This document shows, piece by piece, positions 1-8,343 of a stretch of DNA of 11,906 nucleotides. Position 1 is the stretch's first letter; each line of letters opens with the position of its first letter. The notes beneath the pieces were generated by a model. That model saw only the letters and a list, made by a program, of their open reading frames with translations. It was not told the DNA's origin and ran no database searches. Source of the DNA: Rhodoferax sp. (GTDB lineage: Bacteria > Pseudomonadota > Gammaproteobacteria > Burkholderiales > Burkholderiaceae_C); NCBI GenBank assembly GCA_029946045.1, contig JAQSDS010000448.1, positions 1 through 11,906 of the forward strand, in the 5' to 3' direction. A program made the position numbers and the translations under genes.

Positions 1-1584
1 CACTATATTGGCCTGCTGGTGGACCACCATCAGCCGGAGCTGGCCGAGACTTTTTTCAACTCGGTCACCACCAAGATCCTGCACCGCAGCTACTTCCAGA
101 ATGATTTCATTTTCATTCGCCCGGCGGTCAGCACCGAGTACATAGAAAACAGCGAGTCTGAGTCACGCCCCACTTACCGCGCTTATTACCCGAGCGCCAG
201 CAACATGCAGGAGGTCCTGCTGCAAATGGTGCAAGACTTTCATTTGCGGCGTGACTTTGAAGACCTGCCACGTGACGTGGCACGGGTGGCAGGGGTACTG
301 AACCGCCTGCTGGGTGACGCCACCTTGCGCGCCAATTTTCAGATTCAGGTGCTCACAGGCCTGTTTTTCCGCAACAAGGGCGCTTACATCGTGGGCCGGC
401 TGATCAACGGCTTTGCCGAAGTCCCCTTTGCCCTGCCCATGTTGTATGTCCAAGGGGAATAAAAGCTGGTCATTGACGCGGTGCTGTACGGCGAGGATGA
501 CCTGCACATGCTGTTCAGTTTTGCCCGCGCCTACTTCATGGTCGACATGGAAATCCCGAGTGCCTATGTGCAGTTTTTGCGCAACATGATGCCGCGCAAG
601 CCGCGCAACGAGCTCTACAGCGCCCTGGGTCTGGCCAAGCAGGGCAAGACCCTTTTTTACCGCGACTTTCTCTACCACCTGCGCCATTCCACTGACCCAT
701 TTCGCATCGCGCCCGGCATCAAGGGCATGGTCATGCTGGTGTTTGACCTGCCCAGCTTTCCCTATGTGTTCAAGCTCATCAAGGACTTTTATCCGCCACC
801 CAAGGAGACCAGCCGTGAGCAGATCAAGGGCAAGTACCTGCTGGTCAAGCAGCATGACCGCGTGGGTCGCATGGCCGACACCCTGGAGTACAGCGAGGTG
901 GCTTTCCCGCGCCAGCGTTTCACCGACGAGCTGATTGCCGAGATCGAGAAATTTGCCCCCAGCCAGCTGGAGATCAGCGATCGCGATGGCGACGGCCAGG
1001 TCGAGGTGATCCTGAAGCACGTCTACATTGAGCGGCGCATGATTCCGCTCAATATCTACCTGCAGGAAGCCTTTGATGCCGGCGGGGCCGACCCTGCCAA
1101 CACCAGCCCGCAAGCGCAACGCGCCCACGAGCAACTCGAGCGTGGTGTGATCGAGTACGGCAATGCCATCAAGGACCTGGTGGCGGCCAACATCTTTCCC
1201 GGTGACATGCTGTGGAAGAACTTTGGCATCACGCGCCATGGCAAGGTGGTGTTTTACGACTACGACGAGATCGAATACATCACCGACTGCGTCTTTCGCC
1301 GGGTTCCCCAGCCGCGCAACGAAGAAGAAGAAATGTCGGGCGAGGTCTGGTACACGGTGGGCCCGAAAGACGTTTTCCCCGAGACTTTTGGGCCGTTTTT
1401 GCTGGGCAACCCGGCGGTGAAAGCGGTGTTCATGATGCACCACGCTGATCTGCTCGATGTGGCGTTCTGGCAGAGTCACAAGGAGCGGATTCAGTCGGGT
1501 TACGTGTACGACGTTTTTCCGTACGACCAGCACAAGCGGTTTTCTCCTGAGCGCGCTGATGCGCAGGCTCGGGCATCGATTTGA
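1..1584 (+). pseudogene. aceK: Isocitrate dehydrogenase kinase/phosphatase AceK, 5'-truncated by window edge, with in-frame TAA
   Basis: AceK phosphorylates and dephosphorylates isocitrate dehydrogenase and so sets the split between the TCA cycle and the glyoxylate shunt in the cytoplasm. The frame is open from base 1 (HYIGLLVDHHQPELAETFFNSV), so the N-terminus lies outside the window. Family landmarks are present: [22 protein letters not shown], the ATP-loop sequence [12 protein letters not shown] (about 709-744), VFKLIKD with the ATP-binding Lys (about 766-786), [24 protein letters not shown] (from about 1186) and FYDYDE. A TAA at 460-462 interrupts the frame between YVQGE and KLVIDAV. The reading frame is the same on both sides, so this is a nonsense codon, not a frameshift. 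The downstream part (GTG at 481, 367 residues) holds the whole kinase domain but has no convincing ribosome binding site. The alternatives are a real pseudogene, a recent point mutation or a sequencing/assembly error. Family identity is very sure; functional status is not. Confidence 0.93.
460..462 (+). other. In-frame TAA stop inside aceK
   Basis: The codon lies between GGG GAA and AAG CTG GTC, in a variable stretch just before the conserved [12 protein letters not shown] segment. One base change from GAA, CAA or AAA would give TAA. The following base is A, and no known readthrough or recoding signal was recognised. Confidence 0.9.
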
Positions 1585-1605: not shown

Positions 1606-2787
1606 ATGACAGAGCAAATAGTGATCGTGGGCGCAGCCCGCACCCCCATGGGTTCTTTTCAGGGCGACTTTGCGTCGCTGGCGGCGCACGACCTGGGTGG
1701 CGTGGCCATCCGGGCTGCCGTACAGCGTGCCGGTGTTAACCCGGAGCTGGTCAACGAGGTGCTGTTTGGCAACTGCCTGATGGCGGGCCAGGGCCAGGCG
1801 CCGGCCCGGCAGGCGGCACTGAAAGGCGGCTTGCCGCTGAGTGCGGGCGCGGTCACGCTGTCAAAAATGTGCGGCTCGGCGATGCGTGCAGCCATGTTTG
1901 CCAATGACATGCTGGCGGCCGGCAGCGCCGACGTGCTGGTGGCCGGCGGCATGGAAAGTATGACCAACGCGCCCTACCTGTTGCCCAAGGCGCGCGCTGG
2001 CTACCGCATCGGGCACGACCGCATTTTTGACCACATGATGCTCGACGGCCTGGAAGACGCCTACGAGCCCGGCCGTTCCATGGGCACCTTTGGCGAAGAC
2101 TGCGCTGCCAAATACGGCTTTACCCGTGAACAGCAAGACGCCTTTGCCACCGCCAGCGTGCAGCGTGCGCAGGCAGCGACCCAATCGGGCGCTTTTGCCG
2201 CCGAAATTGCGCCCGTCACCGTCAAAACGCGCGCCGGTGAGACCGTCATTGCGATTGATGAAGGCCCCGGCAAGGTCAAGCTCGACAAGATCAGCTCGCT
2301 CAAACCCGCGTTCAAGAAGGACGGCACCATCACGGCGGCCAGCAGTTCCAGCATCAACGACGGCGCTGCCGCGCTGGTCATGATGCGTGCCTCCACTGCG
2401 GCCAGCCTGGGTCTCAAGCCGCTGGCGCGCGTGGTGGCGCACGCCGTGCACGCCCAAGAACCCAACTGGTTTGCCACCGCGCCCATTGGCTCGGTCAACA
2501 AGGTGCTGGCCAAGGCGGGCTGGGGCGTGAAAGACGTCGACCTGTGGGAGGTCAACGAAGCCTTTGCCGTGGTGCCGATGGCGCTGATGCACGAGCTTAA
2601 TTTGAGCCACAACATCGTCAATGTGAATGGCGGCGCTTGCGCCCTGGGGCACCCGATTGGCTGCAGCGGCGCCCGCATCATGGTGACCCTGATGTATGCG
2701 CTGCAGGCGCGTGGCCTGAAAAAGGGCGTGGCCAGCCTGTGTATTGGCGGTGGCGAGGCGACCGCCGTGGCGCTTGAAATGCTCTGA
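1606..2787 (+). CDS. Acetyl-CoA C-acyltransferase (thiolase)
   Basis: This 393-residue thiolase either cleaves 3-ketoacyl-CoA with CoA or condenses two acetyl-CoA, in the cytoplasm. The length is that of the PhbA/AtoB/FadA type. All catalytic elements are visible: the nucleophile Cys89 in LSKMCGSAMRA, NEAF at about 317-320, His349 in GGACALGHPIGCSGARI, and the second Cys379 in SLCIGGGEA. The start ATG has an AAGGAG at 1594-1599, six bases upstream. The gene begins 21 bp after the aceK stop and is probably cotranscribed with it. Sequence alone does not separate a degradative role (fatty acids, branched-chain amino acids) from a polyhydroxybutyrate role; the nearby acyl-CoA dehydrogenase at 8371 favours degradation. 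Codons for residues about 276-293 are duplicated at 8218-8269. Confidence 0.95.
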   Translation: MTEQIVIVGAARTPMGSFQGDFASLAAHDLGGVAIRAAVQRAGVNPELVNEVLFGNCLMAGQGQAPARQAALKGGLPLSAGAVTLSKMCGSAMRAAMFANDMLAAGSADVLVAGGMESMTNAPYLLPKARAGYRIGHDRIFDHMMLDGLEDAYEPGRSMGTFGEDCAAKYGFTREQQDAFATASVQRAQAATQSGAFAAEIAPVTVKTRAGETVIAIDEGPGKVKLDKISSLKPAFKKDGTITAASSSSINDGAAALVMMRASTAASLGLKPLARVVAHAVHAQEPNWFATAPIGSVNKVLAKAGWGVKDVDLWEVNEAFAVVPMALMHELNLSHNIVNVNGGACALGHPIGCSGARIMVTLMYALQARGLKKGVASLCIGGGEATAVALEML

Positions 2788-2870: not shown

Positions 2871-5621
2871 TCAAGCCGCCCAGACCGCCGCCGAGTGCCA
2901 GTTGGCCATCCAGTCGGGAAAATCGGCGGCAGGCATGGGTTTGTCGATGCCGTAGCCCTGAGCCAACTCACAGCCTATCGACAACAGCAGTTTGCCATGC
3001 GCTGCGGTCTCCACGCCTTCGGCAATGACCCCGCGATGGAAGGCGCTGGCCAGGCCGACAACGCCTTGCACAATCGCCAGGTCATCCGGATCCTGGAGCA
3101 TGTCGCAAACAAAGCTCTGGTCAATCTTGAGCACCTCCGCCGGCAGACGGCGCAAATAGGTCAGCGACGAATAGCCAGTGCCAAAGTCGTCCAGCGAGAA
3201 GTGCACGCCCAGGGCCTGACAGGCGCGCATGATCTGGGATACATGAACGATATCTGCCAGTGCACTGGTTTCCAGCACTTCGAGTTCCAGGCAATTCGGT
3301 TCCACGTCCGGGTGCTCAAGCAGCAGCGCTGACAGGCGCGCCGTAAAGTTGGGGTCTTGTAGCTGTCTGGCGCTGATGTTGACGCTGACCGGGATGTCGA
3401 GCCCGCCGGTCTTCCAGTGGCCCATTTGGGACAGTGCGCTGGTGATGACCCATTCGCCCAACTCGACATTGAGCGGGTCGTCTTCGATGATGTGCAAGAA
3501 CAAGGAAGGGGCTAACAGGTCACGCTCGGGGTGTTGCCAGCGGATCAGCGCTTCAGCACCAACGACCGCGCCGGTTCTCAGGTTCACCTTGGGCTGGTAG
3601 AACAGCACGAATTCCTTGTGATCGAGCGCAAGGCGAATCTGCTCCAGGCTGTCATGCTGGGTCTGAATCGCGGCATCCTGCGCCACATCAAACAGGTGGT
3701 AGCGGTTCTTGCCGGCATCTTTGGCCAGGTACATCGCCTGGTCGGCATGGCGCAGCAACTGGTCGGCATCGGTGCCGTCTTTCGGAAAGATGGTCACGCC
3801 GATGCTGGCCGAGGTCTGTAGCACGGCTTCGATGACGTTGCCGTCCTGGTCAATGCCCGCACGCACGGCTACCGAGCTGGCCGCAGCGCGCAGCAGCCGC
3901 TCCAGCACCGGGTAGCAGTCTTGCGCCTGTTCCAGATCGACCAGGATGGCGACAAATTCGTCGCCGCCGATGCGTGCCAGGCTGTCACCCTCGCGCAAGG
4001 CCTCTTTCATGCGCTGCGACAACTCGATCAGCAGGGTGTCGCCCGCGGTGTGGCCGTACTTGTCATTGATCTCCTTGAAGTGATCCAGGTCGAGGTAGGC
4101 CACGGCAAGTGAATGCTCGCGGCGCTGGCACTGGACGATGCCCTGCTGCATCCGGTCGGCCAGCAGCAGGCGGTTGGGCAGCCCGGTGAGCGCGTCGTAG
4201 TGGGCCATGCGTTCAAGCTGGTTCTGATGCTCTTTCTGCAGCGTGATGTCGGTGAACAGGGCCACATAGTTTTGTGTTTGGCCAGCCGCGTCGCGCACGG
4301 CGCTGATGGTGAGCATTTCGGCAAACAGTTCACCGCTCTTGCGCCGGTTCCAGAGCTCGCCGTACCAGTGGCCTTTGTCAGTCAGGGCTTTCCACATGGC
4401 AGCATAAAACTCGGGCACCTGGCGGCCGGATTGCAGCATGCGCGGGTTTTGACCCAGCGCTTCGTCACGGCTGTAGCCGGTGAGCAGCGAGAAGGCGGCG
4501 TTGACCTCGATGATGGTGCCCGTCGCATCGGTAATGATGATGCCCTCACGGGCATGGGTGAACACATTGGCGGCGAGTTGCAGGCGGCTTTCGGACGTGG
4601 TTTTTTCGATGGCGATGGCAGCCAGGTGCGCTTCATCCTCAATCAGTTGCAGCCCGGCAGCTGTGGGCTGGTAGGCCTGGCGGTGGTAGACCGCAAAAGT
4701 GCCGAGCACCTGGCCTTGCTCCGAGAGAATCGGCTGCGACCAGCAGGCACCCAAACCGGCTCGCCTCGCCAGGTCGCGGTAGGGTGTCCAAAAGGCGTGG
4801 GTTTCAATCTCTTCTACAACCACGCGCTGGCCGGTAAAGGCGGCCGTGCCACAAGAGCCAACACCGTGACCGATCGCCAGGCCCGCGATCGCCTCGTTAA
4901 AAAAATCAGGCAGGCTCGGCGCGGCACCCTGGCGCAGTTGTTTGCCGTCGTTATCCAGCAACAAAATGCTGCACAGCATGGCCGGGTTAAGTGACTCCAG
5001 GTCACGCACGATGGTGTCAAGCACGCTGGCCAGCGGTGCGTTGGCGGTCAGCATCTGCAGAACCCGGTTGATGTGCGCGACCTGGGTGTGTTGGCGCTCG
5101 CGTTCTTCGGCCCGATTGCGCTCGGTCAGGTCCGTTGCCACGATGCTGATGATGCCAACCGAAGCCGGGGGCGGGCGGTTGAGGGACAGATGAACGGGCA
5201 GCAAGGTGCCGTCGTCGCGGCGCAAGCCGACTTCGCCTTCGCTGCGTCCCGATGGCGTCGCCTGCAGCAGCGCGGCCCAGGCGGTGCCCTGACCTGGCGC
5301 GAGGAAGGCATCGAACGCCGCGCCAATCACCTGGTCAAGCGGCTTGCTGAGCAGTTCTGCAAAGCGTCGGTTGCAGTACAGGATGGTGCCCGATTCGGAC
5401 AGGCTGAGCGCGCCCTCGTTCATCTGCTCGATGAACACCCGGTAGGGCGTGTTTGCGTCTTCAAGCGTGAACACCCGGTCGCCCTGCGGGCCGGCCACGA
5501 TCAGCGCGTCCACAGCGCCGTTGCGGATCGCCCACAGCGTCTCTTCGGCTTCAGCGAGCCGCTCGCGCAAATCCTTCAGTTCCCGCGCGAGGTCCTCGCG
5601 CGGTTTTCCAGTGGGCGGCAA
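2871..5621 (-). CDS. PAS-GAF-PAS-GGDEF-EAL sensor, dual c-di-GMP cyclase/phosphodiesterase
   Basis: A predicted cytoplasmic protein of 916 residues with no visible membrane segment. Order of parts: coiled coil (about 8-30), PAS (about 55-168), GAF (about 183-340), PAS (about 348-463), GGDEF (about 470-645), EAL (about 658-905). The cyclase motif IGGDEF is intact (GGDEF 552-556). An RxxD product-inhibition site (Arg543-Asp546) sits six residues before it, as in PleD. The phosphodiesterase side also looks complete: EAL at 690-692, Asn748, the DDFGTGYSS loop 811-819, Lys832 and the EGVE loop 868-871. Both activities are therefore possible, and the balance cannot be read from sequence. The frame extends upstream to 5825, but that part overlaps kaiB. 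I chose the TTG at 5621 because AGAGGAG lies eight bases upstream and it starts just after the kaiB stop. It is the last gene of the kai operon. Confidence 0.9.
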   Translation of the reverse strand: MPPTGKPREDLARELKDLRERLAEAEETLWAIRNGAVDALIVAGPQGDRVFTLEDANTPYRVFIEQMNEGALSLSESGTILYCNRRFAELLSKPLDQVIGAAFDAFLAPGQGTAWAALLQATPSGRSEGEVGLRRDDGTLLPVHLSLNRPPPASVGIISIVATDLTERNRAEERERQHTQVAHINRVLQMLTANAPLASVLDTIVRDLESLNPAMLCSILLLDNDGKQLRQGAAPSLPDFFNEAIAGLAIGHGVGSCGTAAFTGQRVVVEEIETHAFWTPYRDLARRAGLGACWSQPILSEQGQVLGTFAVYHRQAYQPTAAGLQLIEDEAHLAAIAIEKTTSESRLQLAANVFTHAREGIIITDATGTIIEVNAAFSLLTGYSRDEALGQNPRMLQSGRQVPEFYAAMWKALTDKGHWYGELWNRRKSGELFAEMLTISAVRDAAGQTQNYVALFTDITLQKEHQNQLERMAHYDALTGLPNRLLLADRMQQGIVQCQRREHSLAVAYLDLDHFKEINDKYGHTAGDTLLIELSQRMKEALREGDSLARIGGDEFVAILVDLEQAQDCYPVLERLLRAAASSVAVRAGIDQDGNVIEAVLQTSASIGVTIFPKDGTDADQLLRHADQAMYLAKDAGKNRYHLFDVAQDAAIQTQHDSLEQIRLALDHKEFVLFYQPKVNLRTGAVVGAEALIRWQHPERDLLAPSLFLHIIEDDPLNVELGEWVITSALSQMGHWKTGGLDIPVSVNISARQLQDPNFTARLSALLLEHPDVEPNCLELEVLETSALADIVHVSQIMRACQALGVHFSLDDFGTGYSSLTYLRRLPAEVLKIDQSFVCDMLQDPDDLAIVQGVVGLASAFHRGVIAEGVETAAHGKLLLSIGCELAQGYGIDKPMPAADFPDWMANWHSAAVWAA

Positions 5622-5626
5622 GGCGA

Positions 5627-5953
5627 TTACTCCTCTGGCTTGATATCGAGCGCAATCAACACGCGATGGGTGTTCGACAAATCGCCAATCAGCCGGCGCA
5701 GTGGCAGCGGCAGTTGCTTGACCAGCGTCGGCGCGACCACGATCTGCTCGCCCTGGGCATTCTCGGGCTGCTGATAGAGGTCGATGACGTTGAGCTCGTA
5801 GCGGTCTTTCAGGCGCGCCTCGCATAAATTTTTGATGTTGGCGACGGCGCGCGCCGACTGCGGCGTGTTGCCGGCGATATACAGGCGCAGCACGTATTTG
5901 CCTTCGCCCGATTTCGCCAGCAGTTCTTCAAAGTCGGAAATGGAGTCGGTCAT
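5627..5953 (-). CDS. kaiB: KaiB family protein, second copy (KaiB-2)
   Basis: A 108-residue thioredoxin-fold KaiB homologue. In cyanobacteria KaiB binds the CI ring of KaiC after switching fold. The diagnostic segments are present: LRLYIAGNTPQSARAVANIK (about 22-41), YELNVIDLYQQPENA, APTLVKQLPLPLRRLIGDLS (about 74-93) and RVLIALD. The N-terminus has about 15 extra residues compared with the 102-residue Synechococcus protein, and the acidic C-terminal tail is shorter. Ala101 replaces the glycine found at this place in KaiB-1 (IGLD) and in Synechococcus KaiB (Gly88). The ATG has AGGAGAAAG just upstream, overlapping the KaiB-1 stop; the gap between the two genes is 12 bp. Family assignment is very sure; whether it binds the neighbouring KaiC is inferred. 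Confidence 0.94.
   Translation of the reverse strand: MTDSISDFEELLAKSGEGKYVLRLYIAGNTPQSARAVANIKNLCEARLKDRYELNVIDLYQQPENAQGEQIVVAPTLVKQLPLPLRRLIGDLSNTHRVLIALDIKPEE
5630..5636 (-). promoter_or_regulatory. Ribosome binding site deciding the TTG start of the GGDEF-EAL gene
   Basis: On the minus strand the sequence reads AGAGGAG, then TAATCGCC, then TTG. The site lies inside the last codons of kaiB and its TAA stop is in the spacer. This implies translational coupling between kaiB and the downstream gene and argues against the longer upstream extension of the frame. Confidence 0.6.
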
Positions 5954-5965
5954 GGTTTCTTTCTC

Positions 5966-6298
5966 CTATGCGCTCAGCCGCAGGTCCAGGCCGATCAATA
6001 CCCGCTCCGTGTTCGATAGATCGCCGATGATCTTGCGCACCGGCTCAGGGAGTTTTCGCACCAGCGTGGGCAGTGCCAGGATCTGGTCGCCCGCAGCGAG
6101 TTGCGGTTGCAGCATCAGGTCGATCACCTCGATCCGGTATTTGCCTTGCAAGTGCTCGCTGCAGATGCGCTTCAGGTTGGCGAAGGCAGTCAGTGATTTT
6201 GGTGTCTGGCCAGCCACGTAGAGGCGCAGATCCCAGATGACCTCGGTCGGCTCGGTCGAGCTAGCTACGCTTGGCGCTGCCTGTTTTTTTGCATTCAT
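5966..6298 (-). CDS. kaiB: KaiB family protein, first copy (KaiB-1)
   Basis: A 110-residue KaiB homologue. It shows [20 protein letters not shown] (about 24-43), [35 protein letters not shown] (about 76-95) and RVLIGLDL. It keeps the Gly103-Leu-Asp105 that matches Gly88 and Asp90 of Synechococcus KaiB, so it is the more clock-like of the two copies. About 20 N-terminal residues rich in Ala, Ser and Thr precede the fold. The frame is open further upstream to 6553, but that part overlaps kaiC. The ATG at 6298 has AGGAGA at 6307-6312, eight bases away, and is the only Met near the conserved start. It begins 37 bp after the kaiC stop and is probably cotranscribed with kaiC. Confidence 0.94.
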
Positions 6299-6335
6299 TT
6301 GCTGGGTCTCCTGGTAAGCACCGACAGACCAGCGC

Positions 6336-8072
6336 TCATTTTTTCTTCGCTCTGGCCATCGTGGACGCATCCGCCTGGCGACTGCGGCCCATCGCCTGGC
6401 GGTCATCCTGCAGCCGGTTTTTGCGTTGTGATGCCTCGCTGGCGAGCTGGCCAACCTCGGCCTCGCTGGCGGCGAATTCGGCGCGCAAGGCGGCAATCTG
6501 GCTCTCCATCGCCAGGCGCTTGCGCTCCAGCACGACATCCTGGCGCTGCGCATCCTGCTGCGCGGCCACTTGTTCGGCCTGCTCGCGCGCTTCCTGCGCC
6601 AGCCTGGCCGAGCCGGTCAGCAGGCCCGCCGGGCCAACATACACGTCGGCCAACTCGACCCCGTGGTCGCTCAGCAAAAACTCACGAATCTGGTTCGAGT
6701 GCGCCATGCCGCGTGATTTCAGCACGTACATGCCGCGATTGCGCTCGCCGTTGAACTCCAGGTCGCGCAGCAGCAGCCAGGTGTCGATCAGCGAGGAGAT
6801 CGCTTCGCCGGTTTGCTCTGCCGCCTCACTGCCGGTGTGGGTGAGGTTGACCAGCATCACCGTGATGTTCCTCGCTTTGAGGAAGTCAATCAGCCGGATC
6901 AGCATCGACTTGATCTCGGCCTGCGAGCCGGCCCCGCCAAACGAGGAAATCGGGTCGACGATCACCACGCTGGGCTCAAATTCGTTGATCATCTTGAGCG
7001 TGGTCGAGAGGTGCATTTCCAGGCCGGTGAGCGAAGGCCGCGAGGCCTGAAGCCGCAGCAGCCCCTTTTTTACCCAGGGCTGCAGATCTGCGCCGATCGA
7101 GCGCATGTTGCGCAGCAACTGGCTTGGCGACTCCTCAAACAAAAACGTCAGGCAGCGCTCGCCCCGGCGGCAGGTCGCTTCGGCAAAGAGCGCGGCCAAG
7201 CTGGTCTTGCCACTGCCTGCCGTGCCCGACACCAATATGCTGCTGCCACGGTAATAGCCTTTGCCGCCCAGCATGGCATCAAGCCGGGCGATGCCCGATG
7301 AGATGCGTTCCTGTGACACCAGGTGCTGCAGACCGAGCGAGGTCACCGGCAGCATGAAGATGCCTTGCTCGTCGATGAGGAACGGGTATTCGTTGGTGCC
7401 GTGGACGGAGCCGCGGTATTTGGCCACGCGCAGTCGCCGCGTCGACATCTGCTCGGTCACGCGATGGTCGAGCACGATCACGCAATCCGAGACGTATTCT
7501 TCGATGCCATAGCGCGTCAGGGTACTCTCGCCGCGTTCGCCGGTGATGACGGCGGTGACCCCCTTTTGCTTGAGCCACCGGAACAGCCGGCGCAGCTCGG
7601 CACGCAGAATGGCCGGGTTGGGCAGCCCGGCAAACAGGGCTTCTACGGTATCCAGTACCACCCGCTTGGCACCGATGCTGTCGATGGCACTGCCGAGGCG
7701 GATGAACAGGCCTTCAAGGTCGTATTCGCCGGTCTCCTCAATTTCGCTGCGCTCGACGTAGACGTAGTCGAGCGCGAGTTTCTTCGCCGCCACCAGCGCC
7801 TTCAGATCAAAGCCGAGCGAGGCGACATTGCTGGTGAGATCTTCGGCCGTTTCCTCAAACGCCATGAACACGCCTGGTTCCTTGTATTGCTGCGCGCCGT
7901 GGACCAGAAACTCCATCGCCATGAGCGTCTTGCCGCAGCCAGCGCTGCCACAGATCAGCGTGGGCCGGCCCGTCGGAAACCCGCCGCCGGTGATATCGTC
8001 GAGCCCGCGGATGCCGGTGGGTGATTTCGGCAGGTACAACACGGGGGTTTTTTTGACCAGGTTTGGTTTCAT
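6336..8072 (-). CDS. kaiC: Circadian clock/timer ATPase KaiC with C-terminal coiled coil
   Basis: A 578-residue double RecA-type ATPase. The CI half has Walker A GSAGCGKT (42-49), the catalytic FEETAED (Glu73/Glu74) and Walker B VVLD (138-141). The CII half has GTAGSGKT (283-290), FEESPSQ (Glu313/Glu314) and VVIVD (369-373). By alignment to Synechococcus KaiC, the autophosphorylation pair Ser431/Thr432 is Ser426/Ser427 here (AISSLIDT), and Thr426 matches Thr421. From about residue 490 the protein runs into a charged, alanine/glutamine/arginine-rich tail of about 85 residues ending in KKK, which looks like a coiled coil. Known KaiBC-only proteobacterial KaiCs, such as that of Rhodobacter sphaeroides, have such a tail and use it to pair hexamers. 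No kaiA is visible. The start ATG lacks a strong ribosome binding site, but the next residues match KaiC N-termini. It is the first gene of the leftward operon. Confidence 0.96.
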
Positions 8073-8217: not shown

Positions 8218-8269
8218 TGGTGGCACACGCCGTGCACGCCCAAGAACCCAACTGGTTTGCCACCGCACC
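8218..8269 (+). pseudogene. Duplicated fragment of the thiolase gene
   Basis: Bases 8218-8269 match 2432-2483 inside the thiolase gene, in the same orientation, with two differences (2439/8225 and 2481/8267). Bases 2440-2480 are identical to 8226-8266. Read in frame the segment encodes VAHAVHAQEPNWFATAP, thiolase residues 277-293. There is no start codon and the similarity stops abruptly on both sides, so it is a remnant and not a gene. It lies just outside the kai operon. Confidence 0.93.
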
Positions 8270-8295: not shown

Positions 8296-8313
8296 GTTGA
8301 CGTTAACGTCAAC
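8296..8313. promoter_or_regulatory. Perfect 18-bp palindrome, candidate operator of the acyl-CoA dehydrogenase gene
   Basis: GTTGACGTTAACGTCAAC reads the same on both strands. Its centre, ACGTTAACGT, resembles the ACGT-N2-ACGT sites I recall for MerR-family LiuR regulators of branched-chain amino acid and acyl-CoA catabolism; this recall is not verified. It lies 57 bases before the acyl-CoA dehydrogenase ATG and runs straight into the hexamer repeat. A -10-like GATAAT at 8283-8288 would place it at the transcription start, a position that suits repression. Confidence 0.55.
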
Positions 8314-8343
8314 GTCAACGTCAACGTCAACGTCAACGTCAAC
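8305..8343. repeat. Tandem AACGTC hexamer repeat, six copies
   Basis: Six perfect AACGTC units (8305-8340) are followed by AAC. The first unit is the right half of the 18-bp palindrome, so the array consists of repeated operator half-sites. It ends 27 bases before the acyl-CoA dehydrogenase start codon. On the minus strand each unit supplies a TTGACG that resembles a -35 box. Only the one at 8312-8307 is 17 bases from a -10-like GATTAT (8289-8284). Confidence 0.97.

What the first reader, a model, noticed from the sequence alone, without database searches (positions are those of the whole stretch)
2871..8072. KaiC-KaiB-KaiB operon ending in a dual c-di-GMP enzyme
Seen directly: four minus-strand genes with gaps of 37, 12 and 5 bp, encoding KaiC, two distinct KaiBs and a PAS-GAF-PAS-GGDEF-EAL protein with intact GGDEF, RxxD and EAL residues. 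Known: cyanobacterial clocks pass output through SasA/RpaA, and proteobacterial kai genes are often next to histidine kinases. Inference: here a KaiA-less Kai timer is wired to c-di-GMP, giving time- or energy-dependent control of biofilm or motility. The tight coupling of kaiB-2 and the c-di-GMP enzyme supports a joint function.
Basis: partly seen in the sequence, partly recalled or inferred. Interest (0 to 1): 0.72.

Follow-up and report, generated by a model that had tools for sequence, protein, structure and literature searches.

The report
KaiBC timer operon with c-di-GMP output
A freshwater bacterium carries a simple clock-protein operon whose last gene encodes an enzyme predicted to make and break a biofilm/motility signal, and a short stretch at the start of that enzyme, found beside clock genes in very different microbes, looks like the plug that connects such clocks to interchangeable outputs.

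Summary
In detail: four minus-strand genes, kaiC, kaiB-1, kaiB-2 and a PAS-GAF-PAS-GGDEF-EAL gene, with gaps of 37, 12 and 5 bp and intact catalytic motifs. KaiC is of the Rhodobacter sphaeroides type; the assembly shows no KaiA. A GGDEF/EAL protein behind kaiC/kaiB was already in print (De Luca 2011), so the pairing itself is not new. What I add: the enzyme's N-terminus (residues 11-61) is a module, NMOD, with no significant PDB sequence match. In 80 named KaiB loci, bacterial and archaeal, chosen as best matches to this KaiB type, NMOD is on the next recognised gene (75) or fused (1), attached to histidine kinases (46), GGDEF/EAL (13) or HD-GYP (3). In four genome searches all 27 NMOD matches at E<=1e-5 lie beside kai genes. 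The two KaiBs fall into two position-specific groups (70 of 70), and KaiB is naturally fused to NMOD in several proteins. So the window is a c-di-GMP output variant of a modular KaiBC system. Physical coupling remains inference.

The parts
6336..8072 (-). kaiC, double-domain KaiC, 578 aa, R. sphaeroides type
   Evidence: Pfam PF06745 350.8 bits; best PDB match 8dba, residues 14-566; Walker A at 42 and 283, EE at 73 and 313
6792..6797 (-). KaiC Ser426-Ser427, predicted phosphosites ([12 protein letters not shown])
   Evidence: aligned to the S413/S414 region of 8dba (paper passages)
6375..6575 (-). KaiC C-terminal extension (residues ~500-566), coiled coil in the R. sphaeroides relative
   Evidence: sequence alignment with 8dba; not modelled here
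5966..6298 (-). kaiB-1, first-position KaiB, 110 aa
   Evidence: PF07689 93.7 bits; best PDB match 8fwj, KaiB of the R. sphaeroides complex; outside the second-position clade
5627..5953 (-). kaiB-2, second-position KaiB, 108 aa
   Evidence: PF07689 87.8 bits; second-position clade, support 1.0
5630..5635 (-). GAGGAG, likely ribosome-binding site inside the end of kaiB-2 (translational coupling)
   Evidence: read from the sequence
2871..5621 (-). PAS-GAF-PAS-GGDEF-EAL protein, 916 aa, TTG start
   Evidence: Pfam; PDB GGDEF-EAL matches such as 5m3c
5439..5591 (-). NMOD (residues 11-61): N-terminal module, long helix plus beta hairpin ahead of the first PAS
   Evidence: alignment A4; model mean pLDDT 90.9; genome searches
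3702..4205 (-). GGDEF domain with intact GGDEF and RxxD
2937..3644 (-). EAL domain with intact catalytic residues
2432..2483 (+). 52-nt segment inside the thiolase gene, repeated on the far side of the operon
8218..8269 (+). second copy (96%) of the 52-nt thiolase segment, upstream of kaiC

Best explanation
The operon is a KaiA-less, KaiC_RS-type timer or energy sensor wired to c-di-GMP. KaiC, probably a coiled-coil-joined double ring, autophosphorylates on Ser426/427 and reads the ATP/ADP ratio (inferred from homology). KaiB-1, the paralogue nearer to the R. sphaeroides KaiB, binds the post-hydrolysis CI ring and speeds ATP turnover (inferred). KaiB-2, the copy next to the output gene, carries KaiC's state to the output protein by touching its N-terminal NMOD helix-hairpin (inferred from specificity, order and natural fusions). 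Through the PAS/GAF coiled coils this shifts the balance of the GGDEF (synthesis) and EAL (breakdown) domains, with breakdown the likelier conserved output. NMOD is an adaptor: elsewhere the same timer carries a histidine kinase or HD-GYP domain behind it. Shown: gene order, motifs, paralogue split, NMOD specificity in the genomes searched, fusions. Inferred: contact, direction and timing.
For: Order and spacing. KaiC similar to KaiC_RS over 14-566 including the C-terminal extension. In 80 named loci: kaiC within 400 bp upstream in 77, two KaiBs in 68, NMOD on the next recognised gene or fused in 76, full kaiC-kaiB-kaiB-NMOD in 63; of the 75 unfused, 67 have a gap of 50 bp or less, overlaps included. 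NMOD searches (60, 274, 398 and 149 genomes, partly overlapping): 27 matches at E<=1e-5, all 27 beside kai genes; Fisher p 2.6e-11 in the 149-genome set. All 70 second-position KaiBs form one clade holding none of the 70 first-position ones. KaiB-NMOD fusions: L142 (GGDEF-EAL), P0121, P0122, P0124; NMOD only in part in P0123 and P0132, KaiB only in part in P0133. 14 of 18 NMOD-GGDEF-EAL proteins keep a standard GGDEF motif; the EAL positions checked are all kept in 16 of the 17 whose EAL domain is complete, L142 differing at one Glu. HD-GYP on the same module.
Against: No experiment. The 80 loci are the best of 573 matches to KaiB patterns drawn from this group, so their conservation is biased towards the type; other KaiB loci in the class sample have other neighbours. 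At least 9 of the 27 genomes gave rows to alignment A4 itself, so their matches were expected; the finding is the lack of strong matches elsewhere. The larger searches scored at most 17, 25 or 46 candidates per genome and could hide NMOD copies. Three weaker partial matches lie outside kai loci. The model of the natural KaiB-NMOD fusion gave no confident interface (pTM 0.47). Four of 80 loci show no NMOD: three end within about 140 bp of kaiB, but L106 has a kinase gene without it. Three single-KaiB loci (L060, L062, L144) have NMOD with a KaiB outside the second-position clade, so KaiB-2 is not obligatory. In S. elongatus c-di-GMP changed rhythms without a consistent direct effect on Kai proteins in vitro (PMC13001216, passages).
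Confidence: 0.6

Rival explanations
1. NMOD touches KaiC, not KaiB-2: its long N-terminal helix packs against KaiC's C-terminal coiled-coil bundle, whose register shifts with phosphorylation, and KaiB-2 only tunes KaiC.
For: KaiC here has the C-terminal extension, whose coiled-coil register shift follows phosphorylation in KaiC_RS (passages); NMOD begins with a long helix; NMOD is present where the single KaiB is not of the second type (L060, L062, L144) and where KaiB carries a stop (G124).
Against: The fusions join KaiB, not KaiC, to NMOD; kaiB-2, not kaiC, is the gene next to NMOD.
Confidence: 0.2
3. The output enzyme is a generic PAS/GAF c-di-GMP sensor with Kai as its target rather than its input (c-di-GMP feeds back on Kai).
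For: c-di-GMP level alters the cyanobacterial rhythm (PMC13001216 abstract).
Against: Kinase outputs on the same module point to Kai as input; that study saw no consistent direct effect of c-di-GMP on Kai proteins in vitro (passages).
Confidence: 0.05

Closest known systems
Rhodobacter sphaeroides KaiBC (Pitsawong et al. 2023, PMC10076222; passages read)
   Same: Double-domain KaiC with C-terminal extension, two adjacent serines, no KaiA; KaiB-1 closest to the KaiB of that complex.
   Different: The passages read concern one KaiB; Ma 2016 describes the R. sphaeroides operon as kaiC-B-PAS/HK (passages). Here there are two KaiBs and a c-di-GMP output.
kaiC-kaiB with HK or GGDEF/EAL neighbour, first context of De Luca et al. 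2011 (PMC3164672; section 17 read in full; passages)
   Same: Same gene context: a GGDEF/EAL protein immediately downstream of kaiC or kaiB; SS phosphosites fall in their ST/SS group.
   Different: Section 17 describes a shared N-terminal region only for the kinases of their second, kaiB-less context; it does not mention a module shared by kinase and GGDEF/EAL outputs, two KaiB clades or fusions. Figures and supplements were not seen.
Rhodopseudomonas palustris kaiC-kaiB-PAS/HK operon (Ma et al. 2016, PMC4794148; passages)
   Same: KaiBC system with a PAS-domain output protein in one operon.
   Different: Kinase output, one KaiB described; whether its kinase carries NMOD was not tested here.
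Legionella pneumophila kai operon (Loza-Correa et al. 2014; not held; content recalled only)
   Same: Named as a KaiC2 homologue with a role in stress response in PMC5520375 (passages).
   Different: Recalled from memory as including a further signalling protein; not checked.
Cyanobacterial SasA/RpaA output (PMC13001216 passages)
   Same: A clock-dedicated output protein.
   Different: The output here has no histidine kinase domain and no KaiB-like domain by Pfam.

Membership tests
KaiA-less KaiC_RS-type KaiBC system | Double-domain KaiC with both P-loops and catalytic Glu pairs | tested here: met
   Walker A 42 and 283, EE 73 and 313
KaiA-less KaiC_RS-type KaiBC system | C-terminal coiled-coil extension | tested here: met
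   by sequence only: alignment to 8dba through residue 566; structure not modelled
KaiA-less KaiC_RS-type KaiBC system | Two adjacent Ser phosphosites | tested here: met
   S426/S427
KaiA-less KaiC_RS-type KaiBC system | KaiA absent | tested here: inconclusive
   no PF07688 match in the own assembly, but it is 86.7% complete; none in the operon
KaiA-less KaiC_RS-type KaiBC system | ATP/ADP-driven timing and KaiB binding | not testable with these tools
   needs biochemistry
GGDEF-EAL c-di-GMP enzyme | Intact GGDEF active site and RxxD I-site | tested here: met
   GGDEF 552, REGD 543
GGDEF-EAL c-di-GMP enzyme | Intact EAL catalytic residues | tested here: met
   EAL, N, E/E, DD, K, E/E, Q positions; which positions are catalytic is recalled
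GGDEF-EAL c-di-GMP enzyme | Measured DGC or PDE activity | not testable with these tools
   no assay
De Luca 2011 first kaiC context | kaiC-kaiB clustered with HK or GGDEF/EAL gene immediately downstream | tested here: met
   definition read
SasA-type clock output kinase | KaiB-like N-terminal domain plus histidine kinase domain (definition recalled; SasA N-terminal similarity to KaiB mentioned) | tested here: not met
   neither domain reported for the 916-aa protein at E<=1e-3

The most novel reading that the evidence does not exclude
NMOD is a dedicated, previously undescribed clock-output docking domain shared by bacteria and archaea. An ancient second KaiB paralogue plugs the KaiBC timer through it into interchangeable effectors: histidine kinases, GGDEF/EAL and HD-GYP c-di-GMP enzymes, and, on single proteins seen here, a SpoIIE-type phosphatase and a sigma-54 activator.
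Probability: 0.5. Interest if true: 0.82.

Novelty: new variant of a known kind. Interest (0 to 1): 0.62.

Why it matters
How KaiBC systems without the cyanobacterial KaiA and SasA/RpaA pass information on is open. If NMOD is the plug, a ~50-residue module predicts clock outputs across many genomes from sequence, gives a concrete binding pair (KaiB-2 or KaiC with NMOD) to test, and links energy or time sensing directly to c-di-GMP, that is to the choice between motility and biofilm. It also suggests a role for the second KaiB.

Tried and rejected
Rejected: 'chance neighbours' (order recurs). Rejected as a full account: 'NMOD is an ordinary PAS prefix', because the PAS part was left out of alignment A4 and the strong matches still lie beside kai. 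Rejected: 'novel because Kai meets c-di-GMP', since De Luca 2011 printed it. Tried without result: structure model of the natural KaiB-NMOD-PAS fusion, pTM 0.47, KaiB half poorly predicted, no interface; PDB sequence search with NMOD, best E 0.019, nothing significant; Foldseek on NMOD-PAS, where the listed top 50 are mainly PAS and LOV proteins; Rfam and tRNA scans of the window empty; terminator-like sites fewer than in shuffles (2 against a mean of 5.2), promoter-like sites 3 against 1.2. Inconclusive: homology of the shorter 'GEVDAV' N-terminus (L020, L022, L023, L068, L072) to NMOD, hhalign probability 50%, E 1.6e-4 for one pairwise comparison. The paper searches behind 'not seen in print' were made; they cover open-licence PMC papers only. 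Passages of PMC6627678, PMC10132064, PMC5847659 and PMC10278575 were also looked at and add nothing on NMOD. Rows dropped: three weak partial NMOD matches (G295, G306, G449; E 1e-4 to 1e-3, 21-31 of 51 positions) lie outside kai loci and are not in the 27; the search of the family of G463 had its limit at 1e-5, so weak matches there were not shown.
Full report
WHAT IS THERE. The window is one whole contig (C448, 11,906 bp) of a 3.31-Mb draft genome, 86.7% complete. Its genus is Rhodoferax, inferred from a same-genus contig (G045:C7, 41,147 bp) that fits the named record of L075 in length and KaiB. On the minus strand lie kaiC (8072-6336), kaiB-1 (6298-5966), kaiB-2 (5953-5627) and a 916-aa PAS-GAF-PAS-GGDEF-EAL gene (5621-2871, TTG start), with gaps of 37, 12 and 5 bp. 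A GAGGAG overlapping the end of kaiB-2 suggests translational coupling. These are the only KaiB matches in the assembly; no KaiA match was found.

THE TIMER. KaiC aligns with R. sphaeroides KaiC over residues 14-566, including the C-terminal extension that forms the coiled coil there. It keeps both P-loops, both Glu pairs and two adjacent serines, S426/S427; two serines are described for cyanobacterial KaiC2 proteins in PMC5520375 (passages). KaiB-1 matches 8fwj, the KaiB of the R. sphaeroides complex, best (105 bits); KaiB-2 matches 4kso best (90 bits), a cyanobacterial KaiB by my recall.

THE OUTPUT. GGDEF, RxxD and the EAL positions checked are intact. I took 18 NMOD-GGDEF-EAL proteins at kai loci (window, L016, L018, L056, L062, L070, L079, L083, L087, L098, L101, L110, L112, L121, L124, L135, L142, L146; L075 and L179 left out as the same contigs as L016 and L083; L070 and L135 are split into two frames). 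Of these, 14 keep a standard GGDEF motif and 4 do not (L016, L062, L079, L083). The EAL domain is complete in 17 (L079 is cut by its contig); 16 keep every position checked and L142 differs at one Glu. HD-GYP stands in place of GGDEF-EAL in L017, L090, L107, L138 and L186. So c-di-GMP breakdown is the likelier shared output. This is inference from motifs.

THE MODULE. Residues 11-61 of the enzyme (window 5439-5591) match the N-termini of the other output proteins. I aligned 27 of them without the PAS domain (A4). AlphaFold puts a long helix, then a beta hairpin, ahead of a PAS fold (mean pLDDT 90.9). No Pfam family has its best stretch there (second stretches of PAS families are not located in that table), and there is no significant PDB sequence match.

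CONSERVATION. I annotated them with my own HMMs, so 'next gene' means the next one with a recognised domain within 1.5 kb on the same strand, and kaiC or a second kaiB counts if within 400 bp. Of the 80, 77 have kaiC upstream, 68 have two KaiBs, 76 have NMOD next (75) or fused (1), and 63 have the full kaiC-kaiB-kaiB-NMOD. Of the 75, 67 have a gap of at most 50 bp (overlaps included), 6 have 51-250 bp, and L116 and L090 have 472 and 585 bp. Outputs on the 76: kinase 46, GGDEF/EAL 13, HD-GYP 3, NMOD only or truncated 14. The four without NMOD are L104, L118 and L152, which end within about 140 bp of kaiB, and L106, which has a kinase gene without it. Record titles of loci with NMOD include Gallionella, Methylococcaceae, Thiodictyon, Bacteroidales, Anaerolineales, Acidobacteria, Nitrospirae, a Nostocales cyanobacterium, Methanoculleus and Methanoperedens. 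L075 and L095 duplicate the genus loci L016 and L019. The set is biased towards this KaiB type. In the class sample of 274 genomes KaiB exceeds the cut-off in 23 and NMOD at E<=1e-5 occurs in 6; other KaiB loci there have other neighbours.

SPECIFICITY. NMOD at E<=1e-5: genus 5 of 60, class 6 of 274 including the own genome, phylum 11 of 398 including the own genome, and another Pseudomonadota family (that of G463) 9 of 149, of which 2 were already counted. That makes 27 distinct genomes, one match each. All 27 lie beside kai genes: by loci, and by coordinates against KaiB. Two are damaged: G124 has a stop in KaiB, and G429 keeps only a 78-aa KaiC/KaiB remnant. At least 9 of the 27 (own, G001, G006, G045, G049, G078, G100, G183, G391) supplied rows of A4, so what counts is the lack of strong matches elsewhere. 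Three weaker partial matches (E 1e-4 to 1e-3) are not at kai loci. Fisher p for KaiB with NMOD by genome: 8e-5 (genus), 2e-7 (class), 3e-11 (family of G463); related genomes are not independent. In the genus search every first-look candidate was scored; in the others at most 25 (class), 17 (phylum) or 46 (family) per genome.

TWO KAIBS. In 70 loci with kaiC-kaiB-kaiB (66 named, plus the window, L018, L019 and L064), all 70 second-position KaiBs form one clade (FastTree support 1.0) with none of the 70 first-position ones. Of 15 single-KaiB loci with NMOD in the tree (L016 and L075 being the same contig), 12 carry the second type and 3 do not (L060, L062, L144). Marker positions differ sharply, such as Leu/Met/Ile at kaiB-1 62 against mostly Tyr at kaiB-2 60. 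This points to one old duplication with a fixed role for each copy. Names here are positional and do not follow the Synechocystis KaiB1-3 scheme.

FUSIONS. In L142 KaiB-2 and NMOD-PAS-GAF-GGDEF-EAL form one reading frame; compared with sister locus L146, a short stretch holding the stop and start is missing. A protein search gave 14 proteins. KaiB followed by full NMOD is found in P0121, P0122 and P0124 (kinase domains, in P0122 only the HisKA part). P0123 has KaiB, NMOD positions 6-35 only, then SpoIIE and ATPase domains; P0132 has KaiB, a weak NMOD (14-51, 29 bits) and PAS repeats; P0133 has the last third of KaiB and NMOD; P0126 has KaiB but no NMOD match. These are gene predictions from assemblies and could include errors. 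Among the 120 listed (of 175) NMOD-PAS relatives of the window protein I counted, from their Pfam lists, 99 with kinase domains, 10 GGDEF+EAL (window included), 3 HD-GYP and 8 with PAS only. Their gene context was not seen.

ORIGIN IN THIS GENOME. In same-genus loci around the acyl-CoA dehydrogenase gene, the thiolase gene lies upstream on the same strand within about 1.1 kb in 20 of 29, and within 250 bp in 14 of these; some of the other 9 are cut by contig ends. In the window the kai operon lies between the two genes, and a 52-nt thiolase segment (2432-2483) recurs at 96% at 8218-8269. The operon is therefore probably an insertion in this lineage. NMOD-type kai loci occur in 5 of 60 genus genomes.

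WHAT IS KNOWN. De Luca 2011 (section 17 read) states that outside cyanobacteria almost all kaiC-kaiB clusters have a histidine kinase or GGDEF/EAL protein immediately downstream of kaiC or kaiB. Ma 2016 describes kaiC-B-PAS/HK operons (passages). c-di-GMP alters the S. elongatus rhythm (abstract and passages). I did not see the NMOD module, the positional KaiB clades or the fusions in the passages read. Loza-Correa 2014 and Makarova 2017 are not held, so precedence there is unchecked.

VERDICT. The best reading is a modular KaiBC timer in which an N-terminal adaptor connects a dedicated KaiB to interchangeable effectors, here a c-di-GMP enzyme. Contact, direction and timing are untested.

Noticed in passing
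window 460-462: aceK (isocitrate dehydrogenase kinase/phosphatase) is cut by one in-frame TAA: ORFs 19-462 and 481-1584 share a frame. Pseudogene or assembly error not settled.
   Followed up: partly
window 2432-2483 and 8218-8269: 52-nt, 96% direct repeat of a thiolase segment on both sides of the kai operon; many same-genus genomes have thiolase close upstream of acyl-CoA dehydrogenase.
   Followed up: yes
window 8300-8343: About seven tandem ACGTCA hexamers upstream of kaiC, holding the -35 of a weak promoter-like site on the minus strand.
   Followed up: partly
L024 9371-10075, L025 7877-8566, L026 2914-3603: REC-KaiB fusion proteins in other genus genomes, between a histidine kinase gene and an HD-GYP or PAS-GGDEF-EAL gene, with no KaiC found in the fetched stretch.
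   Followed up: no
L020, L022, L023, L068, L072: Another kaiC-kaiB-linked GGDEF-EAL group with a shorter 'GEVDAV' N-terminus, possibly a remote NMOD form; GGDEF is degenerate in L020, L022, L023 and L068.
   Followed up: partly
P0125, P0127, P0130, P0131: Proteins with KaiC and KaiB Pfam domains, KaiB at the C-terminal end: apparently KaiC-KaiB fusions.
   Followed up: no
P0134: NMOD-PAS followed by a sigma-54 activator and HTH: a transcription-factor output on the same module; gene context unknown.
   Followed up: no
L186 7594-10943: Kai genes recognisable only as a 78-aa remnant while the NMOD-HD-GYP gene stays long and open.
   Followed up: no
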